Source: an uncultured Clostridia bacterium
GTDB taxonomy: Bacteria; Bacillota; Clostridia; Oscillospirales; Acutalibacteraceae
Length of the DNA stretch: 64,000 nt
Assembly (NCBI GenBank): GCA_944383495.1
Contig: CALWPT010000032.1
Coordinates: 1-64,000, forward strand
Direction: 5' to 3'
Below the pieces are notes generated by a model. It was not told where the DNA came from, did no database searches, and saw nothing but the letters and a program-made list of their open reading frames with translations. The position numbers and the translations under genes were made by a program. This document shows positions 14,334 to 63,977 of the stretch, piece by piece. Position 1 is the stretch's first letter. Each line of letters opens with the position of its first letter.

Positions 14334-14424
14334 TGGCGGAGAAGGGGAGACTCGAACTCCCGCGCCGGTTACCCGACCTACGCCCTTAGCAGGGGCGCCT
14401 CGTCACCAACTTGAGTACTTCTCC
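14334..14424 (-). tRNA. tRNA-Ser (anticodon GCT)
   Basis: This is a 91-base class II tRNA with a long variable arm. The acceptor stem GGAGAAG pairs with CTTCTCC, followed by discriminator G and an encoded CCA. The anticodon loop CTGCTAA gives GCT, reading AGC and AGU serine codons. It lies downstream of tRNA-Ser(TGA) on the same strand. Confidence 0.95.
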
Positions 14425-14450
14425 ATGGTAACAAATGCACACTATAGAAT

Positions 14451-14537
14451 TGGCGGAGAGAGAGGGATTCGAACCCCCGGCTCTTGCGAGTCACTGGTTT
14501 TCAAGACCAGCTCCATAAACCACTCGGACATCTCTCC
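14451..14537 (-). tRNA. tRNA-Ser (anticodon TGA)
   Basis: This is an 87-base class II tRNA with acceptor GGAGAGA pairing with TCTCTCC, discriminator G and encoded CCA. The anticodon loop CTTGAAA gives TGA, reading UCA serine codons. It is the first gene of the two-tRNA unit. Confidence 0.95.
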
Positions 14538-49139: not shown

Positions 49140-49168
49140 TTGACAAAGCTGTTGCCATTTGCTATAAT
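49140..49168 (+). promoter_or_regulatory. Promoter of rplJ-rplL
   Basis: Perfect TTGACA and TATAAT boxes are separated by 17 bases, starting six bases after the rplA stop. Confidence 0.9.
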
Positions 49169-49174
49169 ATAAAA

Positions 49175-49294
49175 GCTGTTCTGACCGAAGACAGCAGGTG
49201 CATTTTGCTTAAGGAAGCTGTAGGCTTCGCCTGCCGAGGAAGGAAAACGCGAAAGCGCTAATGACGAATCTTTGGATTTGGTTATTTTGTTTTC
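49175..49294 (+). promoter_or_regulatory. Ribosomal L10 leader (rplJ autoregulatory RNA)
   Basis: The untranslated leader before rplJ has the layout of the Firmicutes L10 leader, in which the L10-L12 complex binds and promotes attenuation. The call rests mainly on position and the downstream attenuator; a covariance search would confirm it. Confidence 0.7.
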
Positions 49295-49331
49295 AAGTGC
49301 CTTTCTCAGTCGGGAAAGGCACTTTTGTTTT
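49295..49331 (+). terminator. Attenuator in the rplJ leader
   Basis: AAGTGCCTTTC and GAAAGGCACTT form a stem followed by TTGTTTT, 45 bases before the rplJ start. Confidence 0.85.
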
Positions 49332-49376
49332 AGCCCGGAAGCATCCGGCAGTTAATTGACCGGGAGGTGAATGAAT

Positions 49377-55461: not shown

Positions 55462-56367
55462 GTGGTGAGCGGGACAGTGGCGGAATTTTTCGCTGGACTT
55501 TGGGATCAATTTACGGGGATTTTTACGCTTGTTAAAAATCCCCTTGTTGATATTTTAGATATTTTATTGGTAGCGTTTATCTTCTATAAAGCCGTTCAAT
55601 TTATGCGGGAGACACGGGCTGAACAGCTTATCAAGGGGATTGCGATTTTCGCCGTGGTTTTCTTTTTATCCAGTTTTTTGTCAATGCGGGCGACATCATG
55701 GCTTATGCGGGCAGTGATTCAAAACGGCATTCTGGCCATTATTGTGCTTTTCCAGCCGGAATTGCGATCCGCGCTGGAGCGCATGGGCCGCAGCAAGCTG
55801 CGGGGTATCTCTAAGGCGGTATCGGATCAGGAATATGAGAAAATGCAGAACGCCATAGTGGAATTGTGCAAAGCGGTACATTCGCTGCATATGAGCAAAA
55901 CCGGCGCCCTGATTGTGATGGAGCGGGAAACAATGCTGGGCGATATTGTTCAAACCGGTACGATAGTGGATGCCGCTGTTTCCAAAGAGCTTTTGTGCAA
56001 CCTGTTTTATCCCAACACTCCATTGCACGACGGGGCCGTGGTGATCCGCGGCAGCCGGATTGTGGCCGCCGGATGCATCTTGCCTTTGACGCAGCGCAAG
56101 GAACTGGAGGATAGCCAGCTTGGTACCCGTCACCGGGCGTCTTTAGGCTGTTCAGAGAATTCTGACGCGTTGGTCATTGTCGTTTCTGAGGAAACGGGCA
56201 CAATTTCCGTTGCGCAGAATGGCGTGCTGGAACGGAATTTTAATTTTGCATCCATTCGCTCCCGCGTGGAAACAACCTTTTTGGGCGGAGACGATCCAAA
56301 GGATGAAAATTTTATTGTAAGACTGAAAAAAAGGCTATGGAAAAAAGGAGGGCGGAAACGTGGCTAA
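55462..56367 (+). CDS. cdaA: Diadenylate cyclase CdaA
   Basis: This 301-residue membrane-bound cyclase makes c-di-AMP from two ATP. Three N-terminal helices (about 30-95) precede the DAC domain, with LHDGAVVI near residue 190 and GTRHRASLG near 221. The start is uncertain: GTG at 55462 (two consecutive GTGs, weak GGAAAA upstream) or GTG at 55477, giving MAEFFAGL, closer to other CdaA starts. Its end overlaps cdaR by eight bases. The usual third partner glmM does not follow. Confidence 0.95.
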   Translation: MVSGTVAEFFAGLWDQFTGIFTLVKNPLVDILDILLVAFIFYKAVQFMRETRAEQLIKGIAIFAVVFFLSSFLSMRATSWLMRAVIQNGILAIIVLFQPELRSALERMGRSKLRGISKAVSDQEYEKMQNAIVELCKAVHSLHMSKTGALIVMERETMLGDIVQTGTIVDAAVSKELLCNLFYPNTPLHDGAVVIRGSRIVAAGCILPLTQRKELEDSQLGTRHRASLGCSENSDALVIVVSEETGTISVAQNGVLERNFNFASIRSRVETTFLGGDDPKDENFIVRLKKRLWKKGGRKRG

Positions 56368-57610
56368 GCGGAAGTTCTCCCTTAGTGCTTTGGTGTCTAA
56401 CAATAAGCTGGTATTCTTTTTCGCCCTGCTTGTGGCCATTGTGCTGTGGGTCGCGGTGAGTCCCAGCGGCACTCGGGTAATTAGCGGCATTAAGGTCAAT
56501 ATCGTCACGGAAGGAACCCCTGCGGGCAACAGCGGGTTTCAGGTGGTCAGCGGTCAAGGACAAGAGGTAGCCGTAACCATTTCCGGCGAGTTTTCCGTTT
56601 TGAACGGAATCAGCGCGTCGGATATTGAAATCGGCTACTCTTTGGCGGATGTCAACGCCGCGCGGGAATACAGCTTGAAGCTAACGGCTAAGCCGGTCGG
56701 ACGCAGCGACTTTACCATTACTGCTGTCACTCCGGACACCATTAAAGTCCGGTTTGACCAAAGCGCCAGCAATACCTTTATTGTCCAGCCCCAGGCCAAG
56801 GGTGCAGTAGCGGAAACTGGCAAGGTGGCGGAGGCCGCGGTTATGGCTGACAGCAATCAGAATACCATTCGGATTACGGGGCCCAAGACTGATATCGACA
56901 GAATTGTGACTGTTCAGGCTGTCGCAGAGGTCAACAAAACCATGAGTCAGACAGAATCATTTCCGGCCAAAATTGTCTTGCTGGATAAAGACAATCAAGA
57001 AATTGACCAGAGTTTAATGGAACTGTCTTTTCAGGATCCCCAGATCACCGTGCAAATCAGCAAAACCAAAACGGTAAAGGTGGTTCCCACCTTTGAAGGG
57101 ATTCCGGGATATTATCAGGAAAACGATATCCCATATGAATTAAACGTATCTGAAATTACTGTGATCGGAACGCCGGAAACGGTGGATGAAATGACGGAAA
57201 TTGCGCTTCCGGCTATTGATTTCAACACCCTGTTAAACAAGAAAAACGTTTTTAATCTGGAGGTTAATTTGCCTCTGGGCGTGCGTTCGTCAGACAATGT
57301 CACCCAAGTTACTGTTACGGTGGATCTCTCCAGAATGCGAACAGATTCCTGGACAGTGCGGCGCTTTGAGGCTGCCAACGCTCCGGCTGACAAAACCATT
57401 ACCGTTGTTACCAGCTCCAGGCAGGTAACGCTGGTGGGGAACCGGTATTCTATTTGGGATATATCCAGCGACGATATTACGCTGGTATATGACCTGCAGG
57501 ATATTAATGTATCCCAGGGCGAGCATCTTGTTCCAGCCCGCGTAAGGGTTGATGGCTACGATAATGTCTGGGGCGTGGGTGAATATGATGTGCAGGTGCG
57601 CATTGAATAG
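56360..57610 (+). CDS. cdaR: CdaA regulatory protein CdaR (YbbR domains)
   Basis: This 416-residue protein has one N-terminal membrane helix (about 12-34) and then about four YbbR-type beta-rich repeats outside the membrane. It modulates CdaA. The start is GTG with AAAGGAGGGCGG upstream, inside the end of cdaA. About 115 bases separate it from the next gene. Confidence 0.93.
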   Translation: MAKRKFSLSALVSNNKLVFFFALLVAIVLWVAVSPSGTRVISGIKVNIVTEGTPAGNSGFQVVSGQGQEVAVTISGEFSVLNGISASDIEIGYSLADVNAAREYSLKLTAKPVGRSDFTITAVTPDTIKVRFDQSASNTFIVQPQAKGAVAETGKVAEAAVMADSNQNTIRITGPKTDIDRIVTVQAVAEVNKTMSQTESFPAKIVLLDKDNQEIDQSLMELSFQDPQITVQISKTKTVKVVPTFEGIPGYYQENDIPYELNVSEITVIGTPETVDEMTEIALPAIDFNTLLNKKNVFNLEVNLPLGVRSSDNVTQVTVTVDLSRMRTDSWTVRRFEAANAPADKTITVVTSSRQVTLVGNRYSIWDISSDDITLVYDLQDINVSQGEHLVPARVRVDGYDNVWGVGEYDVQVRIE

Positions 57611-57726: not shown

Positions 57727-58446
57727 ATGGAGCGGAATCAACGAACAATCCTATGGAGGAAACTCGTCGGCGTTAGCCTTCTGGCCTTATCAGCGGCCGG
57801 ACTGGTTTACGCCGGCGCTGTATATGGCGGACGCATAATCGCGTTTATTTCTGATGGAACGCAGTTTCGCGCATGGGTGAAGGCGCAGGGAATATGGGGA
57901 CGTTTCGCCATGATGGGGATTATGGCGGTTCAAATTATACTGGCATTTTTGCCGGGCGAACCAGTGGAAATTGCCGCGGGCTTTGCTTTCGGCCCCGTGG
58001 AGGGGGCTGTGCTGTGTCTTGCAGGCGCGGCGGCGGGCTCTGCCGTTGTGTTTTTTCTGGTCCGGCTTTTGGGAATGAGGGTAGCAACGCTGTTCATTAC
58101 CAAGGAAAAGTTTCAATCGATTTCCTTTATGCGGAGCACCAAATGCCTGCATCTTCTGACTTTTGTTTTATTTTTTATACCTGGTTCTCCTAAGGATGTG
58201 CTGACCTATTTTATGGGACTCACGCCTATGAAGGCGGCCGTATTCCTGCCCTTGTCAACGGCCGCTCGAATTCCTTCGGTTTTTACCTCCACCGTGGGCG
58301 GTTCCGCTATGGGGGAGGGGAACTTTTGGTTTGCGGCGTTGGTTTTTGGGGCGACAGCGCTCATCAGCCTGGGGGGGATCTGGGCGTACCGGCAGGTCTG
58401 CAAACGGGAGAAAGGAGAGGCGCAGGGGCCTCTTGAGGAGAAATGA
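57727..58446 (+). CDS. TVP38/TMEM64 (VTT-domain) membrane protein
   Basis: This 239-residue polytopic protein of the SNARE-associated/DedA-related VTT family has the hallmark FLPGEPVEIAAGFAFG near residue 75 and FIPGSPKDVLTYFMG near 150, plus a basic C-terminus. The family is linked to lipid scrambling or envelope maintenance, but the role here is unknown. Its stop overlaps the next start by four bases. Confidence 0.9.
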   Translation: MERNQRTILWRKLVGVSLLALSAAGLVYAGAVYGGRIIAFISDGTQFRAWVKAQGIWGRFAMMGIMAVQIILAFLPGEPVEIAAGFAFGPVEGAVLCLAGAAAGSAVVFFLVRLLGMRVATLFITKEKFQSISFMRSTKCLHLLTFVLFFIPGSPKDVLTYFMGLTPMKAAVFLPLSTAARIPSVFTSTVGGSAMGEGNFWFAALVFGATALISLGGIWAYRQVCKREKGEAQGPLEEK

Positions 58447-58925
58447 GTGAAATGCGCAGAACGGATAGGAAAGTAACGGCTTTTACGGAAATCGTGGAGA
58501 TCATGAAGGAATGCGACGTTTGCCGGATTGGATTTGCCGTTGGAAACGAGGCCTATATTGTTCCGCTTAATTTTGGCCTTAAATTGGAATTTGGGCGGCT
58601 GACGCTTTATTTTCATTGCGCTGCCGCGGGGCGTAAGCTAGAGCTTATGCGGCGGAATCCCCGGGTATGCTTTGAAATGGACCGGGCGCATCGTCTTATT
58701 ACCGGATCCATGGCCTGTCAATATTCTATGGAGTATGAGAGCGTTATGGGAGAAGGCAAGCTGGAGCTTATTCAGCAAGCGGAAGGAAAACGCAGGGGCT
58801 TGGAATGCATTATGGAGCATTATGAAAAAGGCCAGCGATTCTCCTTTGACAATGCACAGCTGGAAAGAGTCGAGGTGTTGAAGCTAACGGTGGATTCGTT
58901 GTCGGGTAAACGGGCGAGGAGGTGA
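58443..58925 (+). CDS. Pyridoxamine 5'-phosphate oxidase-family flavoprotein (Nim-like)
   Basis: This 160-residue split-barrel FMN protein resembles NimA-type 5-nitroimidazole reductases and related small flavoproteins: MRRTDRKV start, IVPLNFG, LYFHCAAAGRKLELMRRNPRVCFEM (about 57-81) and YESVMGEGKLE. Resistance function cannot be inferred from sequence alone. The start may be at 58443 (GGAG close by) or three codons later. It overlaps the TVP38 gene. Confidence 0.87.
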   Translation: MSEMRRTDRKVTAFTEIVEIMKECDVCRIGFAVGNEAYIVPLNFGLKLEFGRLTLYFHCAAAGRKLELMRRNPRVCFEMDRAHRLITGSMACQYSMEYESVMGEGKLELIQQAEGKRRGLECIMEHYEKGQRFSFDNAQLERVEVLKLTVDSLSGKRARR

Positions 58926-59038: not shown

Positions 59039-61555
59039 TTATTCTTTCCTTTTGTTTTTGCTTCGCAGCACAGCCTTAACAGCCTCATACCATATCACAC
59101 AAAAGCATCCGGCGGCCAAAGCAGCCGTGGCCTGCGGCAAGGACAAGGGCGCCAGCTTTAAAAAGCTGTGCAGCGGTGAATATAAAACAATGCCAAGGCC
59201 TGCCAGCGTTCCAAAACAGATTCCCCAAAAAACCTTATCTTTCCGCAGCCGTTTGAAAGAGGAGAAAAGTCCGGCCCTGGCTGAGCTGCCTTCTAAAACC
59301 AAAAACAAATTGGCGATCAATAAAACAGTGAGCCCCATGGATCGGGCAATTTCAGCACCTTGGGTTTGCAGCGTGATAAAATAAAGCCCAAAGGAGACCG
59401 CGAACAAAGCCAAGCCCTGGATTACGCTTTTCAATAAAATCGGCCCGGTCAATAGCTTGCTCCCCGGCTTCCGGGGCGGACGGTTCATGATATCCGCTTC
59501 GGCGGGCTGCCGCTCTAACACAACGGAACAGGTGGGATCAATTACCAACTCCAATAGCACCACATGCAGGGGTAAAAGCAGCAGGGAAGCGGCGCCAATT
59601 CCCAATAATGGCGCCAGCAGAGAAGCAAGGGCAATGGGAATGTGAATGGCGAAAACATATCCCACGGCTTTTTGTATATTATCGAAAATTCGGCGGCCAT
59701 CCCGAATGGTATCCACAATGGTAGAAAAATTATCGTCCAGCAGGATCAGGTCGGCTGCCTCCCGGGATACATCGGAGCCGCGGCCGCCCATGGCAATTCC
59801 AATATCCGCATACTTCAGCGCTGGCGCGTCGTTCACGCCATCACCGGTCATAGCGACAACCTCGCCTACGCTGCGCAGCGCTTTTACAATCCGCATTTTG
59901 TGGGCGGGGGTCACACGGGAAAAAATATTGACGGTTTTGACTGCTTCAAGAAGCGTTTCTTCATCCATTTCTTCCAGCATATCGCCTGTAACGATCCTTC
60001 CGGCGTTGGGGATACCAACCTGCTTGGCAATTGCCCCGGCGGTCACGCCGTTATCTCCGGTGATCATCATGACCCGGACGCCAGCATGTAAACAGCGGGC
60101 AATATCCTCCTGGACGCCCGACCGAGGCGGATCGCTCAAGCCTACAAGCCCGCAGAATTCAAAAGAGCAATCTGTCAGCTTTGCGGGAATATCTTCTTCT
60201 CGCTCCAGCCGCGCATGGCCCACAGCGATCACCCGGAGGCCCTCGCGGGATAGGGCATCGGTCTTTCCCTGCACCTGGGAAAACGCTTCTTCTGATAATC
60301 CGCAAAGAGGCAGAAAGCGTTCGGGTGAGCCTTTAGCGGCAATTTGAATGCCGCTATCCTGCCGCCAGACATGGCCCATCATTTTGTTTTCGTTGGTGAA
60401 GGGGTATTCCTTTAAAAAGTCGCCGCTGAACAACTTGCCTGGCTCTAAATCATGCTTTTGGCAATAACGAAGCATCGCCTGCTCCATGGGATCATAGGCG
60501 TCGATTTCGCAAGCAAGCCCCATGGTTTCGCACATGGTTTTTTCATCGTGCTGGTACGGCCAGACCGACTGAACATCCATTTGATTCATGGTAATGGTGC
60601 CGGTTTTGTCGACGCACAGCACCGAAACCGCACCCAGGGTTTCCACCGAAGGGAGTCTTCGTACCAAAGAGTTTTTTTGGGCAAGGCGCCATGCACCCAT
60701 GGATAAAAACACCGTCAGAATAACTGGAAATTCTTCCGGAATCATAGCCATGGCCAATGTGATACCTGACAACACGCTTTGAACAAAGCGGCTTTTAAAC
60801 GGAAGATCTGACAAATTGAAGTACGTAATTACGCCGACCAATAAAAATAGAACGGCGGCAATGATGGCGCAGAGGGTTACTAGACGGCCGGTCTGTTTTT
60901 GCAGTGGCGTGGGCATGTCGGGCGCTTCCGCGACCTGCCGCCCAATTGTTCCGTATTCCGTGCGCAAGCCGGTTTGCGTTACCTCTACATAGGCGCTCCC
61001 CTGCAATACCATCGTTCCGGCATAACAGTGGTCTTTTTTCCAAACGTCCTTTTCCGATGAGTTCCTGTTGGTTTCATGCTTCCAAACGCCTTGTGCCTCC
61101 CCGGTGAGAGAGGATTCGTCTACGCACAGGTCGTTTTGGCGCAGAATTTTTCCGTCGGCGGGGATTTTCACACCCTCCTCCAGCAGCATGATATCGCCGG
61201 GGACCAGTTCCTCACTGTTGACCGTGACCGTTTGGCCGTTCCGGATCACGCTGATTTTAGGCGCGGACAAATCCTTCAGCGCTTTTAAGGTTTTATCTGT
61301 TTTCCATTCCTGCACGGTTTCAATCCCGATAACGCCGGCTACGAAAACAAGCATAATCGCGCCGTCCCGCGGTTCGCCCAAAATAAAATATATAACGGCG
61401 GCAATGAAAAGCAGCAGAAACATCGGTTCAGTAATGACGTCTATTATTTTGCGAAAAAGGCTGTTTTTTTTCACAGGCGCCAACTGGTTTTTTCCGTGCT
61501 GCTCCTGGCGTTTTTTCACTTCCAGATCCGAAAGGCCCTTGTAAGGCAGGGACAT
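59039..61555 (-). CDS. P-type cation ATPase under NiCo riboswitch control
   Basis: This 838-residue protein has the P2-type domain order. Its motifs are TGEA (151-154), the phosphorylated Asp316 in DKTGT, KGS near 408 and TGDGVND (570-576). The fourth-helix signature is PEEFP (273-277) instead of PEGLP or CPC. The sixth-helix region reads ELVIDPTCS (669-677) where Ca2+ pumps have NLVTDG. No N-terminal metal-binding CxxC domain is present. The NiCo-type riboswitch upstream indicates export of Co2+, Ni2+ or Fe2+, rather than Ca2+; this is inference. AGGAGGAAT precedes the ATG. Confidence 0.92.
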   Translation of the reverse strand: MSLPYKGLSDLEVKKRQEQHGKNQLAPVKKNSLFRKIIDVITEPMFLLLFIAAVIYFILGEPRDGAIMLVFVAGVIGIETVQEWKTDKTLKALKDLSAPKISVIRNGQTVTVNSEELVPGDIMLLEEGVKIPADGKILRQNDLCVDESSLTGEAQGVWKHETNRNSSEKDVWKKDHCYAGTMVLQGSAYVEVTQTGLRTEYGTIGRQVAEAPDMPTPLQKQTGRLVTLCAIIAAVLFLLVGVITYFNLSDLPFKSRFVQSVLSGITLAMAMIPEEFPVILTVFLSMGAWRLAQKNSLVRRLPSVETLGAVSVLCVDKTGTITMNQMDVQSVWPYQHDEKTMCETMGLACEIDAYDPMEQAMLRYCQKHDLEPGKLFSGDFLKEYPFTNENKMMGHVWRQDSGIQIAAKGSPERFLPLCGLSEEAFSQVQGKTDALSREGLRVIAVGHARLEREEDIPAKLTDCSFEFCGLVGLSDPPRSGVQEDIARCLHAGVRVMMITGDNGVTAGAIAKQVGIPNAGRIVTGDMLEEMDEETLLEAVKTVNIFSRVTPAHKMRIVKALRSVGEVVAMTGDGVNDAPALKYADIGIAMGGRGSDVSREAADLILLDDNFSTIVDTIRDGRRIFDNIQKAVGYVFAIHIPIALASLLAPLLGIGAASLLLLPLHVVLLELVIDPTCSVVLERQPAEADIMNRPPRKPGSKLLTGPILLKSVIQGLALFAVSFGLYFITLQTQGAEIARSMGLTVLLIANLFLVLEGSSARAGLFSSFKRLRKDKVFWGICFGTLAGLGIVLYSPLHSFLKLAPLSLPQATAALAAGCFCVIWYEAVKAVLRSKNKRKE

Positions 61556-61670
61556 GGATCATTCCTCCTGTTCATATAATAGATTCATAGCTTTGTTGTG
61601 TCATACGCTTTTTCAGCCACGTCGCCGGACGAAAATTAGCAGAAATATCCCGCTTATGTACTGCATCTAT

Positions 61671-61708
61671 AAAAATACCTGCGGGAACAGAATCACTGTC
61701 CCGCAGGT
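61671..61708 (-). terminator. Riboswitch-controlled terminator upstream of the P-type ATPase
   Basis: On the minus strand ACCTGCGGGACAG pairs with CTGTTCCCGCAGGT (one bulge) and is followed by TTTTT. The 5' arm is also the last conserved part of the aptamer, so ligand binding would prevent termination. Confidence 0.92.
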
Positions 61709-61786
61709 ACCTGCTTCAATTCCTGCTGCCCGAAGGCCCGGCTCCATGCCGCTTGCATATCGGCATTGCCTGCTCAGCTTGAACTG
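61688..61786 (-). promoter_or_regulatory. NiCo (czcD) riboswitch aptamer
   Basis: On the minus strand the conserved core is present in order: CTGAGCAGGCAATG, a hairpin (ATGCCG/CGGCAT), GGAGCCGGGC, a UUCG-closed hairpin, GCAGCAG, a hairpin (GCAGG/CCTGC) and GGGACAG. This is the four-helix architecture of the NiCo/czcD riboswitch, which binds Co2+ and Ni2+, with Fe2+ also reported. The closing helix P1 (CAG-UCA-CU with AG-UGA-CUG) contains bulges. It overlaps the terminator, so it is an ON switch for the P-type ATPase. Confidence 0.93.
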
Positions 61787-61831
61787 TATTTTCGTCGCAA
61801 GGGGTGTATATGCAGTGCAAAGAATAGCTTT

Positions 61832-61861
61832 AGTCTATCATATGCTTTTTCTATTAGTCAA
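61832..61861 (-). promoter_or_regulatory. Candidate promoter of the riboswitch-P-type ATPase transcript
   Basis: On the minus strand TTGACT and TAGACT are separated by 18 bases, about 46 bases upstream of the aptamer. Confidence 0.5.
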
Positions 61862-61944: not shown

Positions 61945-61973
61945 TTGATATTTTTTTAACAAAGTGGTATGAT
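61945..61973 (+). promoter_or_regulatory. Promoter of the ferredoxin-hydrogenase operon
   Basis: TTGATA and TATGAT are separated by 17 bases, 46 bases before the ferredoxin start. Confidence 0.75.
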
Positions 61974-62019
61974 GAATAAAAAGAAAATGCTTGGCAGCTT
62001 GGGTGAAAGGATGGGTTTT

Positions 62020-62265
62020 ATGGATATTTCGGTATGCATTGGCAGCTCCTGTCATTTACGGGGATCGTATGACATTATTAAGGGGCTGGAGGCGCTGATT
62101 GAGCAGCACGGACTACAGAATCAAATCAACCTTGCGGCGGCGTTTTGTCTTGGTAATTGCACAAATGGCGTAACCATTAAGGTGAATGACCGGATTGTCA
62201 CCGGCGTCAGCACAGAAAATCTTCCTCAGGTGTTCAAAGAGCATGTGCTGAAGGCGTTATCGTAA
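62020..62265 (+). CDS. Thioredoxin-like [2Fe-2S] ferredoxin
   Basis: This 81-residue single-domain protein resembles the NuoE/HydC C-terminal ferredoxin fold. The four cluster cysteines are in CIGSSC near the start and CLGNC near residue 43. I chose the ATG at 62020 with AAAGGATGGG upstream; upstream in-frame ATGs would overlap the promoter. It is 26 bases before the hydrogenase-like gene and likely donates or accepts electrons for it. Confidence 0.88.
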   Translation: MDISVCIGSSCHLRGSYDIIKGLEALIEQHGLQNQINLAAAFCLGNCTNGVTIKVNDRIVTGVSTENLPQVFKEHVLKALS

Positions 62266-62291: not shown

Positions 62292-63977
62292 ATGAGCGTT
62301 CTACAATTGAAAAAGGCCAATTGCAGGGACTGTTATAAATGCATCCGCAGCTGTCCTATCAAGTCGATTGAAGTGGTGGATCACCAGGCGCAGATTATTG
62401 AAAACGACTGCGTTTTGTGTGGAAGCTGCGTGCTGGCCTGTCCTCAAAATGCCAAAGAAGTCCGCAACGACGTGGGTAAGGTGAAAGAGCTGCTGGCTGG
62501 GGAACTTCCGGTGATTGCCAGCGTTGCTCCTTCATTCATTGCCGATTTTGCTGTAAGCGGCATTGGTGAATTTCGGGAATCTCTGCAAAAGCTGGGCTTT
62601 GCCGGTGCGGAAGAAACCGCACAGGGCGCGTATATCGTCAAGAGTAAATATGAAAAGCTGATAGAGCATGCGTATAGCAGTGTTATTATTTCCTCCTGCT
62701 GCCATACGGTGTTGAAGCTCATCCAAAAATATTATCCGGAGCTGATCGGGAATATCGCCCCAGTGGTCACGCCCATGCAGGCCCACGCGAAGCTCTTGAA
62801 ATCCCAACACGCATGCCGGGTGGTTTTCATTGGCCCTTGCATTTCCAAGAAGGACGAGGCGGCCGGAAAGGATTCCGCTGTGGACGCGGTTTTAACCTTT
62901 GAAGAGGTCTATGACTGGCTGAAGGAGGAAGGCGTTTCTGTTGGAAGCGACCACGAGCTGGACGATAGCCGCAATATTTCCCGGTTTTTTCCGAAGGCCG
63001 GCGGAATTTTGGAAACCATGGAAAAATCCCTTGCATATCGGTACATAACGGTGGATGGCATGGAAGACTGCATGGAAGCCCTCAACGAGCTGCGCCAGGG
63101 TAAGCTGGAGCATTGCTTTATTGAGATGAGCGCCTGTAAGGGGAGCTGCATCAACGGGCCCTCCATCCGCAAGCACGCGCAGAACCGCCTTCAGGCGACC
63201 CTGCGGGTGAATCAGTACGCTGACAGTCCCGAGCGGCGGGATTTTGGCGTGGAGGCGACATTTGAAACGGCGAAAACCTTTCAGGACGAATATGTGGATG
63301 TGGTCACGCCGGGAGAAAAGGCCATTCAGGATATTATGTATCAGATGGGCAAATTCAGCCCTGAGGATGAACTGAACTGCGGCACGTGCGGATACAATAC
63401 CTGCCGGGAAAAGGCCATTGCGGTATATTATGGTAAAGCGGACGTCAGCATGTGTCTGCCGTATATGAAAAAGCGGGCGGAATCCTTTTCCGATAAGATT
63501 ATCGACGCAAGCCCCAACGGAATCCTCACGGTGGATAAAAATTTGAATGTCCAGCAGGCAAACAGCGCGGCATGTGCGATCTTTAATCTCGGCGATCCGC
63601 GGGATATTGTGGGAAGCCCTGTTTCCCGATTTATGGATGAATTTGATTTCACCAAGGCCTTTGCCACCGAGCGAAAAAAAGCGGAGCAAAAGCTTTACTT
63701 AGCAGAATACGAAAAGTATGTGGAGCAGACCCTGGTGTATGACCGGGAGGATGAAATCGTTATTTGTCTTTTGAAGGATGTGACGGATCGGGAAAGGCAA
63801 ATTGACAAAATGAAAAAAAGCCGGGAAAGCGCCGCCGACATTGCCGGCAAAGTTATTGACAAACAAATGCGAGTGGTACAGGAAATCGCCTCCCTTCTGG
63901 GCGAAACCACGGCGGAAACTAAAATTGCCCTTTTGAAGCTGAAGGATACTACGCTGATGGAGGATGAAAAGCCATGA
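62292..63977 (+). CDS. PAS-containing [FeFe]-hydrogenase-like protein (putative sensory HydS type)
   Basis: This 561-residue protein has two N-terminal [4Fe-4S] ferredoxin motifs (Cys11/14/17/21 and Cys40/43/46/50). The H-cluster domain has SSCCH (136-137), GPCISKKDE (Cys183) and SACKGSC (Cys282 and Cys286). It is followed by a further [4Fe-4S] motif (Cys363, 366, 371, 388) and a PAS domain (about 400-505) ending in a coiled coil. The order matches putative sensory, group C-like hydrogenases. The motifs differ from those of catalytic enzymes (TSCCP and MPCxxKKxE). It is predicted to sense H2 or redox state. A new gene starts inside its stop codon. Confidence 0.92.
   Translation: MSVLQLKKANCRDCYKCIRSCPIKSIEVVDHQAQIIENDCVLCGSCVLACPQNAKEVRNDVGKVKELLAGELPVIASVAPSFIADFAVSGIGEFRESLQKLGFAGAEETAQGAYIVKSKYEKLIEHAYSSVIISSCCHTVLKLIQKYYPELIGNIAPVVTPMQAHAKLLKSQHACRVVFIGPCISKKDEAAGKDSAVDAVLTFEEVYDWLKEEGVSVGSDHELDDSRNISRFFPKAGGILETMEKSLAYRYITVDGMEDCMEALNELRQGKLEHCFIEMSACKGSCINGPSIRKHAQNRLQATLRVNQYADSPERRDFGVEATFETAKTFQDEYVDVVTPGEKAIQDIMYQMGKFSPEDELNCGTCGYNTCREKAIAVYYGKADVSMCLPYMKKRAESFSDKIIDASPNGILTVDKNLNVQQANSAACAIFNLGDPRDIVGSPVSRFMDEFDFTKAFATERKKAEQKLYLAEYEKYVEQTLVYDREDEIVICLLKDVTDRERQIDKMKKSRESAADIAGKVIDKQMRVVQEIASLLGETTAETKIALLKLKDTTLMEDEKP

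What the first reader, a model, noticed from the sequence alone, without database searches (positions are those of the whole stretch)
61671..61861. NiCo (czcD) riboswitch driving a P-type ATPase of unusual type
The minus-strand leader carries all conserved NiCo blocks in order. Its last block, GGGACAG, is shared with an intrinsic terminator, giving a clear transcriptional ON switch. The gene it controls would be guessed as Ca2+ ATPase by homology. The riboswitch instead argues for Co2+, Ni2+ or Fe2+ efflux.
Basis: partly seen in the sequence, partly recalled or inferred. Interest (0 to 1): 0.75.

Follow-up and report, generated by a model that had tools for sequence, protein, structure and literature searches.

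The report
Metal riboswitch unmasks "calcium" pump family
A bacterial gene that homology would call a calcium pump sits behind an RNA switch of the nickel/cobalt/iron-sensing class and lacks most of the usual calcium-binding residues, so it likely exports a transition metal, probably iron, as its widespread relatives would too.

Summary
A full-length NiCo (RF02683) aptamer lies at 61787-61694 (-), 70.2 bits against a cut-off of 37; its last block GGGACAG is in the 5' arm of a terminator (61708-61671). The 838-aa gene behind it is a P2-fold ATPase closest to solved Ca2+ pumps, yet below every curated Ca2+-ATPase cut-off.

Beyond the finding: (1) NiCo precedes 25 of 31 clade ATPases from 197 + 391 genomes and 29 of 35 named close relatives, but none of 20 ordinary P2 ATPases. 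(2) The cation site differs: E275, H638, E669, C676 in 28 of 28, against G, N, N, P in 12 of 12 ordinary pumps. (3) Distant relatives in many phyla largely share it; 1 of 45 has NiCo. (4) The genome has no CDF exporter, the switch's usual client, but two FeoB importers.

Most likely a riboswitch-induced transition-metal exporter; Fe2+ is the best guess, Co2+/Ni2+ the main rival, Mn2+ not excluded. Nothing was tested at the bench. The primary NiCo papers were not readable here, so earlier listing of such ATPases cannot be excluded.

The parts
61832..61861 (-). promoter-like TTGACT-18-TAGACT upstream of the leader
   Evidence: consensus scan, 9 of 12, TG before the second hexamer; 1.6 such sites expected by chance in the region
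61694..61787 (-). NiCo riboswitch aptamer (RF02683), full length
   Evidence: cmscan 70.2 bits, cut-off 37, model 1-96 of 96; only match in the genome
61671..61708 (-). intrinsic terminator whose 5' arm contains the aptamer's GGGACAG; cannot form together with the aptamer's last helices
   Evidence: sequence, fold -22.5 kcal/mol, same arrangement in 25 of 25 ATPase-linked NiCo loci, this one included
61564..61569 (-). AGGAGG ribosome-binding site
   Evidence: sequence
59039..61555 (-). 838-aa P2-fold P-type ATPase with altered cation site (E274 E275 / H638 P640 / E669 D673 C676)
   Evidence: ORF, Pfam, NCBIfam, PDB sequence, AF2 + Foldseek, alignment

Best explanation
A NiCo-class riboswitch lies directly upstream of an 838-residue P2-fold ATPase and overlaps an intrinsic terminator, so surplus Fe2+ (or Co2+/Ni2+) would likely bind the RNA, stop the terminator from forming and switch on a pump predicted to export that metal. 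Shown: aptamer, overlapping terminator, gene order, recurrence of the pair in many genomes, and the conserved replacement of Ca2+-site residues by Glu/His/Cys. Inferred: transcriptional ON control by metal, from the characterised class. Inferred: the pump moves a divalent transition metal outward through E274/E275 (TM4), H638 (TM5) and E669/D673/C676 (TM6). Inferred and least certain: Fe2+ is the main physiological metal, because a review places the class's Fe2+ (and Mn2+) response in the cellular range, and because this genome has two FeoB importers, no CDF exporter, no NiFe hydrogenase and no CbiM.
For: NiCo match 70.2 bits. GGGA-sequestering hairpin plus U-tract in 25 of 25 ATPase-linked loci and 31 of the 33 R1 matches at named loci, the 2 failures being rejected matches; shuffles pass the same lenient test in 400 of 1120. 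P1 covaries: at two P1 positions 48 of 56 loci have CU/AG, 4 UA/UA, one each CG/CG, CA/UG and UG/CG, and 1 is mispaired. NiCo directly upstream of 8 of 10 clade ATPases in the order sample and 18 of 22 in the class sample; none near 20 ordinary P2 ATPases (best 13 bits, E 0.19). Of 73 distinct NiCo loci: 25 this clade, 46 CDF exporters, 2 neither. Clade 28 of 28 aligned (of 31): E275, H638, P640, E669, C676, against G, N, G/S, N, P in 12 of 12 aligned ordinary P2 ATPases (of 20 fetched). CDF absent from 5 of 10 clade genomes against 14 of 187 others, Fisher p 9e-4; 4 of 8 against 6 of 147 in good-quality genomes, p 6e-4. Own genome: no CDF, 2 FeoB, no NiFe hydrogenase, no CbiM, and other P2 ATPases with PEG/PES in TM4. 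Literature: Fe(II) response of the class and a Listeria NiCo-linked PfeT-like exporter giving Fe(II) resistance (PMC7689651, passages); called an Fe2+ riboswitch in PMC11477304 (passages).
Against: No metal binding, termination or transport data. Two of 10 order-sample clade members (one, G168, in the window's own family) and 4 of 22 class-sample members have no NiCo match, one of these four being cut at a contig end. Five of 10 clade genomes also have a CDF. Only 1 of 45 distant relatives has NiCo. The same review says Mn(II) too could bind the switch in cells and that the cognate metal remains unclear. The Fe2+ preference rests on four marker families in one genome; urease, CODH, Nik transporters and cobalamin genes were not searched. 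The terminator test is lenient. The named loci were found partly with the pattern MAMIPEE, so their TM4 letters are partly by construction. The genomes in the CDF test are not phylogenetically independent. SERCA residue roles and numbers are recalled.
Confidence: 0.6

Rival explanations
1. Same switch and same outward pump, but the physiological metals are Co2+ and/or Ni2+ (detoxification), as the riboswitch was first described.
For: Original class assignment with cooperative Co2+/Ni2+ binding (passages in PMC7689651; PMC7917058). A His/Glu/Cys site would suit Co2+/Ni2+ as well.
Against: The own genome has no NiFe hydrogenase and no CbiM, so Ni/Co traffic may be low, though other Ni/Co genes were not searched; the review calls the Co2+ and Ni2+ affinities too weak for a selective response in cells.
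Confidence: 0.24
2. Mn2+ (or Zn2+, or a broad set of divalent metals) is the real cargo and signal.
For: The review says only Fe(II) and Mn(II) would be able to bind the switch in cells, and that the Listeria exporter also gave some Mn2+ and Zn2+ resistance; a Listeria plasmid NiCo precedes a ZosA-like putative zinc transporter (PMC6985202, passages); a Mn2+ riboswitch precedes a P-type ATPase (YoaB/CD2503) elsewhere (PMC11477304, passages).
Against: The aptamer is NiCo, not yybP-ykoY; reported Mn2+ affinities of the class are the weakest listed.
Confidence: 0.1
3. A Ca2+ pump as annotated, induced incidentally by transition metals.
For: Nearest solved structures are LMCA1, SPCA1 and SERCA; 12 of the 27 named rows among the 120 relatives listed bear a calcium name.
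Against: Below the NCBIfam PMR1 and SERCA cut-offs (501 against 798; 411 against 703). Asn/Glu/Asn/Thr of the Ca2+ sites replaced in 28 of 28. NiCo upstream of 25 of 31; ordinary P2 pumps exist elsewhere in the genome.
Confidence: 0.03
4. The hit is a non-functional NiCo element, or the pump works inward.
For: No experiment; no transcript data.
Against: The conserved G blocks and the terminator are intact; the pair is conserved over many families; the other client of the switch is a family of exporters, CDF.
Confidence: 0.03

Closest known systems
NiCo (czcD) riboswitch, RF02683, driving CDF exporters (Erysipelotrichaceae bacterium 3_1_53, C. scindens; PMC6985202, passages)
   Same: aptamer, overlapping intrinsic terminator, transporter gene directly downstream
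   Different: client is a P2-fold ATPase instead of a ~300-aa CDF protein
NiCo riboswitch driving a ZosA-like (627-aa) P-type ATPase on a Listeria plasmid (PMC6985202, passages) and a PfeT-like P1B-ATPase of Listeria (PMC7689651, passages)
   Same: riboswitch-linked P-type ATPase; the review reports Fe(II) resistance from the PfeT-like one
   Different: those are of the P1B kind; this one is 838 aa, P2 fold, TM4 PEEFP, with no CPx-type motif
Mn2+ riboswitch driving YoaB / CD2503 P-type ATPase (PMC11477304, passages)
   Same: metalloriboswitch in front of a cation-translocating P-type ATPase
   Different: different aptamer (yybP-ykoY), described there as an OFF switch, and a different metal
LMCA1 (lmo0841), SPCA1/PMR1 and SERCA Ca2+-ATPases
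   Same: fold, domain order, P-type catalytic motifs, first Glu of the TM4 PE motif and the Asp of TM6
   Different: against ordinary P2 pumps of the same order: Gly to Glu275, Asn to His638, Glu to Ile641, Asn to Glu669, Thr to Ile672, Pro to Cys676; no NiCo switch near 20 such homologues

Membership tests
NiCo riboswitch (RF02683) | covariance-model score at or above the curated cut-off over the full model | tested here: met
   70.2 bits against 37, positions 1-96 of 96
NiCo riboswitch (RF02683) | invariant G runs that coordinate the metal (GCCGGGCC and GGGAC blocks) | tested here: met
   G49-G51 and G86-G88 of the window aptamer are invariant in 43 aligned loci; coordinating role as described in PMC7689651 (passages)
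NiCo riboswitch (RF02683) | expression platform: terminator overlapping the last aptamer block | tested here: met
NiCo riboswitch (RF02683) | binds Co2+/Ni2+/Fe2+ and turns the gene on | not testable with these tools
   needs in-line probing, ITC or transcription assays
P2A Ca2+-ATPase (PMR1/SERCA type) | NCBIfam equivalog cut-off | tested here: not met
   PMR1 501.3 against 798.3; SERCA 411.3 against 703.4; PMCA 376 against 507
P2A Ca2+-ATPase (PMR1/SERCA type) | Ca2+-site residues of TM4-TM6 (E309, N768, E771, N796, T799, D800; SERCA numbering recalled) | tested here: not met
   only E274 and D673 kept; the N, E, N, T positions are H638, I641, E669, I672
P-type ATPase, P2 fold | DKTGT, TGE, TGDGVNDAP, Cation_ATPase_N and _C domains | tested here: met
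   Foldseek TM-score up to 0.85 on the query, to SERCA, in the 50 rows shown
P1B heavy-metal ATPase | CPx/SPC-type motif in the membrane and the IB family cut-off | tested here: not met
   TM4 is IPEEFP; TIGR01525 262.3 against 346.25
Transition-metal exporter | metal-dependent ATPase activity and efflux | not testable with these tools
   inferred from riboswitch and site residues only

The most novel reading that the evidence does not exclude
A large family of P2-fold ATPases, found here in Bacillota, Actinomycetota, Nitrospirota, Acidobacteriota, Cyanobacteriota, Chloroflexota, Pseudomonadota and archaea, signature PEEFP / HxPI / ELxIDPxCS, and often named calcium pumps, is in fact a distinct class of divalent transition-metal (Fe2+ first) exporters with an acidic-histidine-cysteine site; the NiCo riboswitch, present on two separate branches of the family (the window's clade and L171), is the natural label that reveals it.
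Probability: 0.55. Interest if true: 0.7.

Novelty: new variant of a known kind. Interest (0 to 1): 0.55.

Why it matters
Known bacterial iron exporters are few and mostly of the CDF, P1B and MFS kinds (recalled). If this family exports Fe2+ (or Co2+/Ni2+), a P2 fold known for Ca2+, Mn2+, Na+/K+ and H+ (recalled) has been re-tooled for transition metals by a handful of residues, and calcium names on it are wrong: 12 of the 27 named rows among the 120 relatives listed, out of 3240 scored at E <= 1e-180 (how many of the rest bear such names was not seen). The disputed ligand of the NiCo switch also gets many new natural clients to test, several in species in culture, such as Acetobacterium paludosum and Acetanaerobacterium elongatum.

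Tried and rejected
A Mn2+ (yybP-ykoY) or any other known riboswitch on distant relatives: 31 of the 45 distant loci and 3 close ones (L156, L166, L170) were scanned at gathering scores and gave only tRNAs; 3 more distant ones were; L204-L214 were not scanned with Rfam. NiCo at L200 and L203: R1 scores 22.7 and 25.3 bits, but no Rfam match at E <= 0.1 and no terminator, so not counted. A missed diverged NiCo in L028, L030, L077, L078, L079, L080: no R1 match at E <= 5; for L028 and L030 also no NiCo with Rfam at E <= 1. The large NiCo screens used stricter filters that lose weak matches, so their counts are lower bounds. Literature for a P2-type ATPase under NiCo, or for the motif: none seen in the listings, nor in the passages opened; most listed papers were not opened, and the three primary NiCo papers are not held, so this is no proof of absence. 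My first terminator count was faulty, since long folds swallowed the U-tract; one search replaces it.

Full report
OBSERVATION. The minus-strand leader was read and scanned. Rfam NiCo (RF02683) matches 61787-61694 (-) end to end with 70.2 bits against a curated cut-off of 37. It is the only match in the genome G000, which has 1,728,724 bases in 51 contigs and is 95.8% complete. The last aptamer block GGGACAG is inside the 5' arm of a 13-pair hairpin with one bulged U and a UUUUU tail, 61708-61671. The leader folds well below its shuffles, z -4.98. The gene starts at 61555 behind AGGAGG and ends at 59039; the next long ORF downstream (58443-58925) is on the other strand. The pump gene therefore appears to be transcribed alone.

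WHAT THE GENE IS. Pfam gives cation-ATPase N- and C-terminal, E1-E2 ATPase, Cation_ATPase and HAD hydrolase domains. NCBIfam lists the PMR1-type Ca2+ ATPase first, but at 501 bits against a cut-off of 798; only the general P-type model TIGR01494 passes. The nearest solved sequences are LMCA1 of Listeria, then SPCA1 and SERCA. The AlphaFold2 model (pLDDT 84.2, pTM 0.77) matches LMCA1, SPCA1 and SERCA, with a TM-score up to 0.85 on the query in the 50 rows shown. Of 120 relatives listed (3240 scored at E <= 1e-180), 27 bear a name; 12 of these say calcium, the rest 'cation-translocating P-type ATPase' or the like.

THE PAIR IS CONSERVED. In 197 genomes of the window's order, 21 have NiCo. The ATPase search shows a sharp gap: 10 proteins at 53-100% identity, then nothing above 39% in the matches listed. 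Eight of the 10 have NiCo directly upstream; L028 (G048) and L030 (G168, same family as the window) do not, also under a permissive scan. In 391 genomes of the class, 22 such ATPases (E <= 1e-165) lie in 21 genomes, and 18 of 22 have NiCo directly upstream; G260, G287 and G468 do not, and G229 is cut at the contig end. The samples share the window, so the union is 25 of 31, or 25 of 30 where upstream DNA exists. Seen from the RNA side, 73 distinct NiCo loci of these samples lead to 25 ATPases of this clade, 46 CDF-like proteins (BLAST to one CDF, E <= 2e-24) and 2 neither, L093 and the weak L134. The 6 misses are L156, L159, L161, L164, L166 and L170; L159 and L161 lack upstream DNA, and L164's NiCo lies 2.2 kb upstream in front of other genes. 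Rfam agrees for L162, L164, L171, L165 and L157 and puts L163 at 36.2, just under 37. As a control, 20 loci of ordinary P2 ATPases from the same order give nothing better than 13 bits, E 0.19.

TREE. In a FastTree of 116 ATPases (the window, 27 of its 30 clade kin, 76 of 80 named loci, 12 of 20 ordinary pumps; fragments and near-duplicates left out), the ordinary pumps, used as the root, form one side of a branch (support 100). NiCo-linked proteins sit in one supported group (96) of 59 rows, 52 with NiCo, plus L171, which lies inside the distant, multi-phylum group of 45. The label needs 8 changes, against 38.6 in shuffles. L171's aptamer and terminator (ACCCGUGGGACCG ... CGGUUCCGCGGGU) are clear by eye, and its P1 carries its own matching pair (CGG with CCG). 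The switch was thus gained more than once, or kept from a common ancestor and mostly lost.

THE SWITCH. In 25 of 25 ATPase-linked NiCo loci, GGGA is sequestered in a hairpin followed by a U-tract; so it is in 31 of 33 R1 matches at named loci (L164 included; the failures are the rejected L200 and L203) and in 45 of 48 CDF/other loci. Shuffled downstream sequence passes in 400 of 1120 cases, so the single-locus test is lenient, while 56 of 56 ATPase-linked or accepted named loci is far more than that rate gives. Two P1 positions covary with the block that the terminator must also match: 48 CU/AG, 4 UA/UA, 1 CG/CG, 1 CA/UG, 1 UG/CG, 1 mispaired, of 56. This fits the published ON mechanism (passages in PMC7689651, and PMC7917058); direction and ligand were not tested here.

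THE CATION SITE. In 28 of 28 aligned clade members TM4 has MAMIPEEFP, TM5 (I/V)H(I/V)PIA, and TM6 E..(I)DPTCS. In 12 of 12 aligned ordinary P2 ATPases of the same order these are AA(I/M)PEGL, N..E and N..TD. Mapped on SERCA (numbering recalled): E309 and D800 are kept as E274 and D673; N768, E771, N796 and T799 become H638, I641, E669 and I672; a second Glu (E275) and a Cys (C676) are added. The 80 named loci keep H638 and P640 in 79 of 79 readable rows, E275 in 80 of 80, D673 in 77 of 78, C676 in 75 of 78, E274 in 76 of 80 and E669 in 72 of 78; the TM4 letters are partly by construction of the search pattern. Four rows (L185, L188, L196, L209) have N or D at 274, and exactly these four have H at 669, a swap that suggests the two positions act on the same ion. 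Replacement of Ca2+ oxygen ligands by His/Cys and extra Glu fits a transition metal (inference).

WHICH METAL. The window's genome has no Cation_efflux (CDF) match, while 178 of 197 genomes of the order do. CDF is missing from 5 of the 10 clade genomes against 14 of 187 others (p 9e-4), and from 4 of 8 against 6 of 147 among good-quality genomes (p 6e-4). These genomes are not phylogenetically independent, and five clade genomes do keep a CDF. The genome has two FeoB, no NiFe hydrogenase and no CbiM; other Ni, Co and Fe genes were not searched. The review passages report Fe(II) responses of this class, say that only Fe(II) and Mn(II) would bind it in cells, describe a Listeria PfeT-like exporter that protects against Fe(II), and conclude that the cognate metal remains unclear (PMC7689651); a second review lists it as an Fe2+ riboswitch (PMC11477304). 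Together these favour Fe2+, with Co2+/Ni2+ a strong second and Mn2+ possible. The genome also encodes at least four other P2-like pumps with PEG/PES in TM4 and a CPC-type ATPase, so this one is not needed as the Ca2+ pump.

KNOWN AND NEW. The riboswitch class, its terminator platform, its control of CDF exporters and its link to ZosA/PfeT-like P-type ATPases are in print (passages in PMC6985202; PMC7689651). I saw no paper on a P2-fold client or on the PEEFP/HxP family in the listings or in the passages opened, but most listed papers were not opened and the three primary NiCo papers are not held; they may list such ATPases. Hence: known riboswitch, new variant of client, and a testable substrate reassignment.

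Noticed in passing
window 61969-62265 and 62292-63977 (+): Divergent from the pump: a 98-aa NuoE-like [2Fe-2S] thioredoxin-fold protein and a 561-aa [FeFe]-hydrogenase-like protein with ferredoxin, FeS and PAS domains, perhaps of the sensory kind. An iron-rich neighbour, possibly coincidental.
   Followed up: partly
window 49167-49337 (+): L10 ribosomal protein leader, 71.7 bits against a cut-off of 44.
   Followed up: no
window 14337-14537 (-): Two tRNA genes in tandem found by Rfam.
   Followed up: no
window 55462-57610 (+): Two ORFs (301 and 416 aa) that look like CdaA diadenylate cyclase and YbbR; names recalled, not searched.
   Followed up: no
L093 1501-1611: Strong NiCo (76.1 bits) with terminator but no CDF or ATPase match in the 1.5 kb downstream: an orphan or a new client.
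   Followed up: partly
L164 1220-1311: Lentisphaeria-labelled NiCo (60.9 bits) in front of a 555-aa frame and a 173-aa frame, with the ATPase third: maybe one metal operon.
   Followed up: partly
L185, L188, L196, L209: Distant pumps with N/D at the E274 position and H at the E669 position, 4 of 4 together: a natural double swap in the ion site.
   Followed up: partly
L156: A Bathyarchaeota-labelled contig carries a 62% identical pump without NiCo: lateral transfer or mis-binning.
   Followed up: no
L118, L124 (G391, G430): A second NiCo-ATPase subtype (53% identity to the window's) with UA-type P1 and a UAGUC terminator arm; G391 carries both subtypes, each with its own switch.
   Followed up: partly
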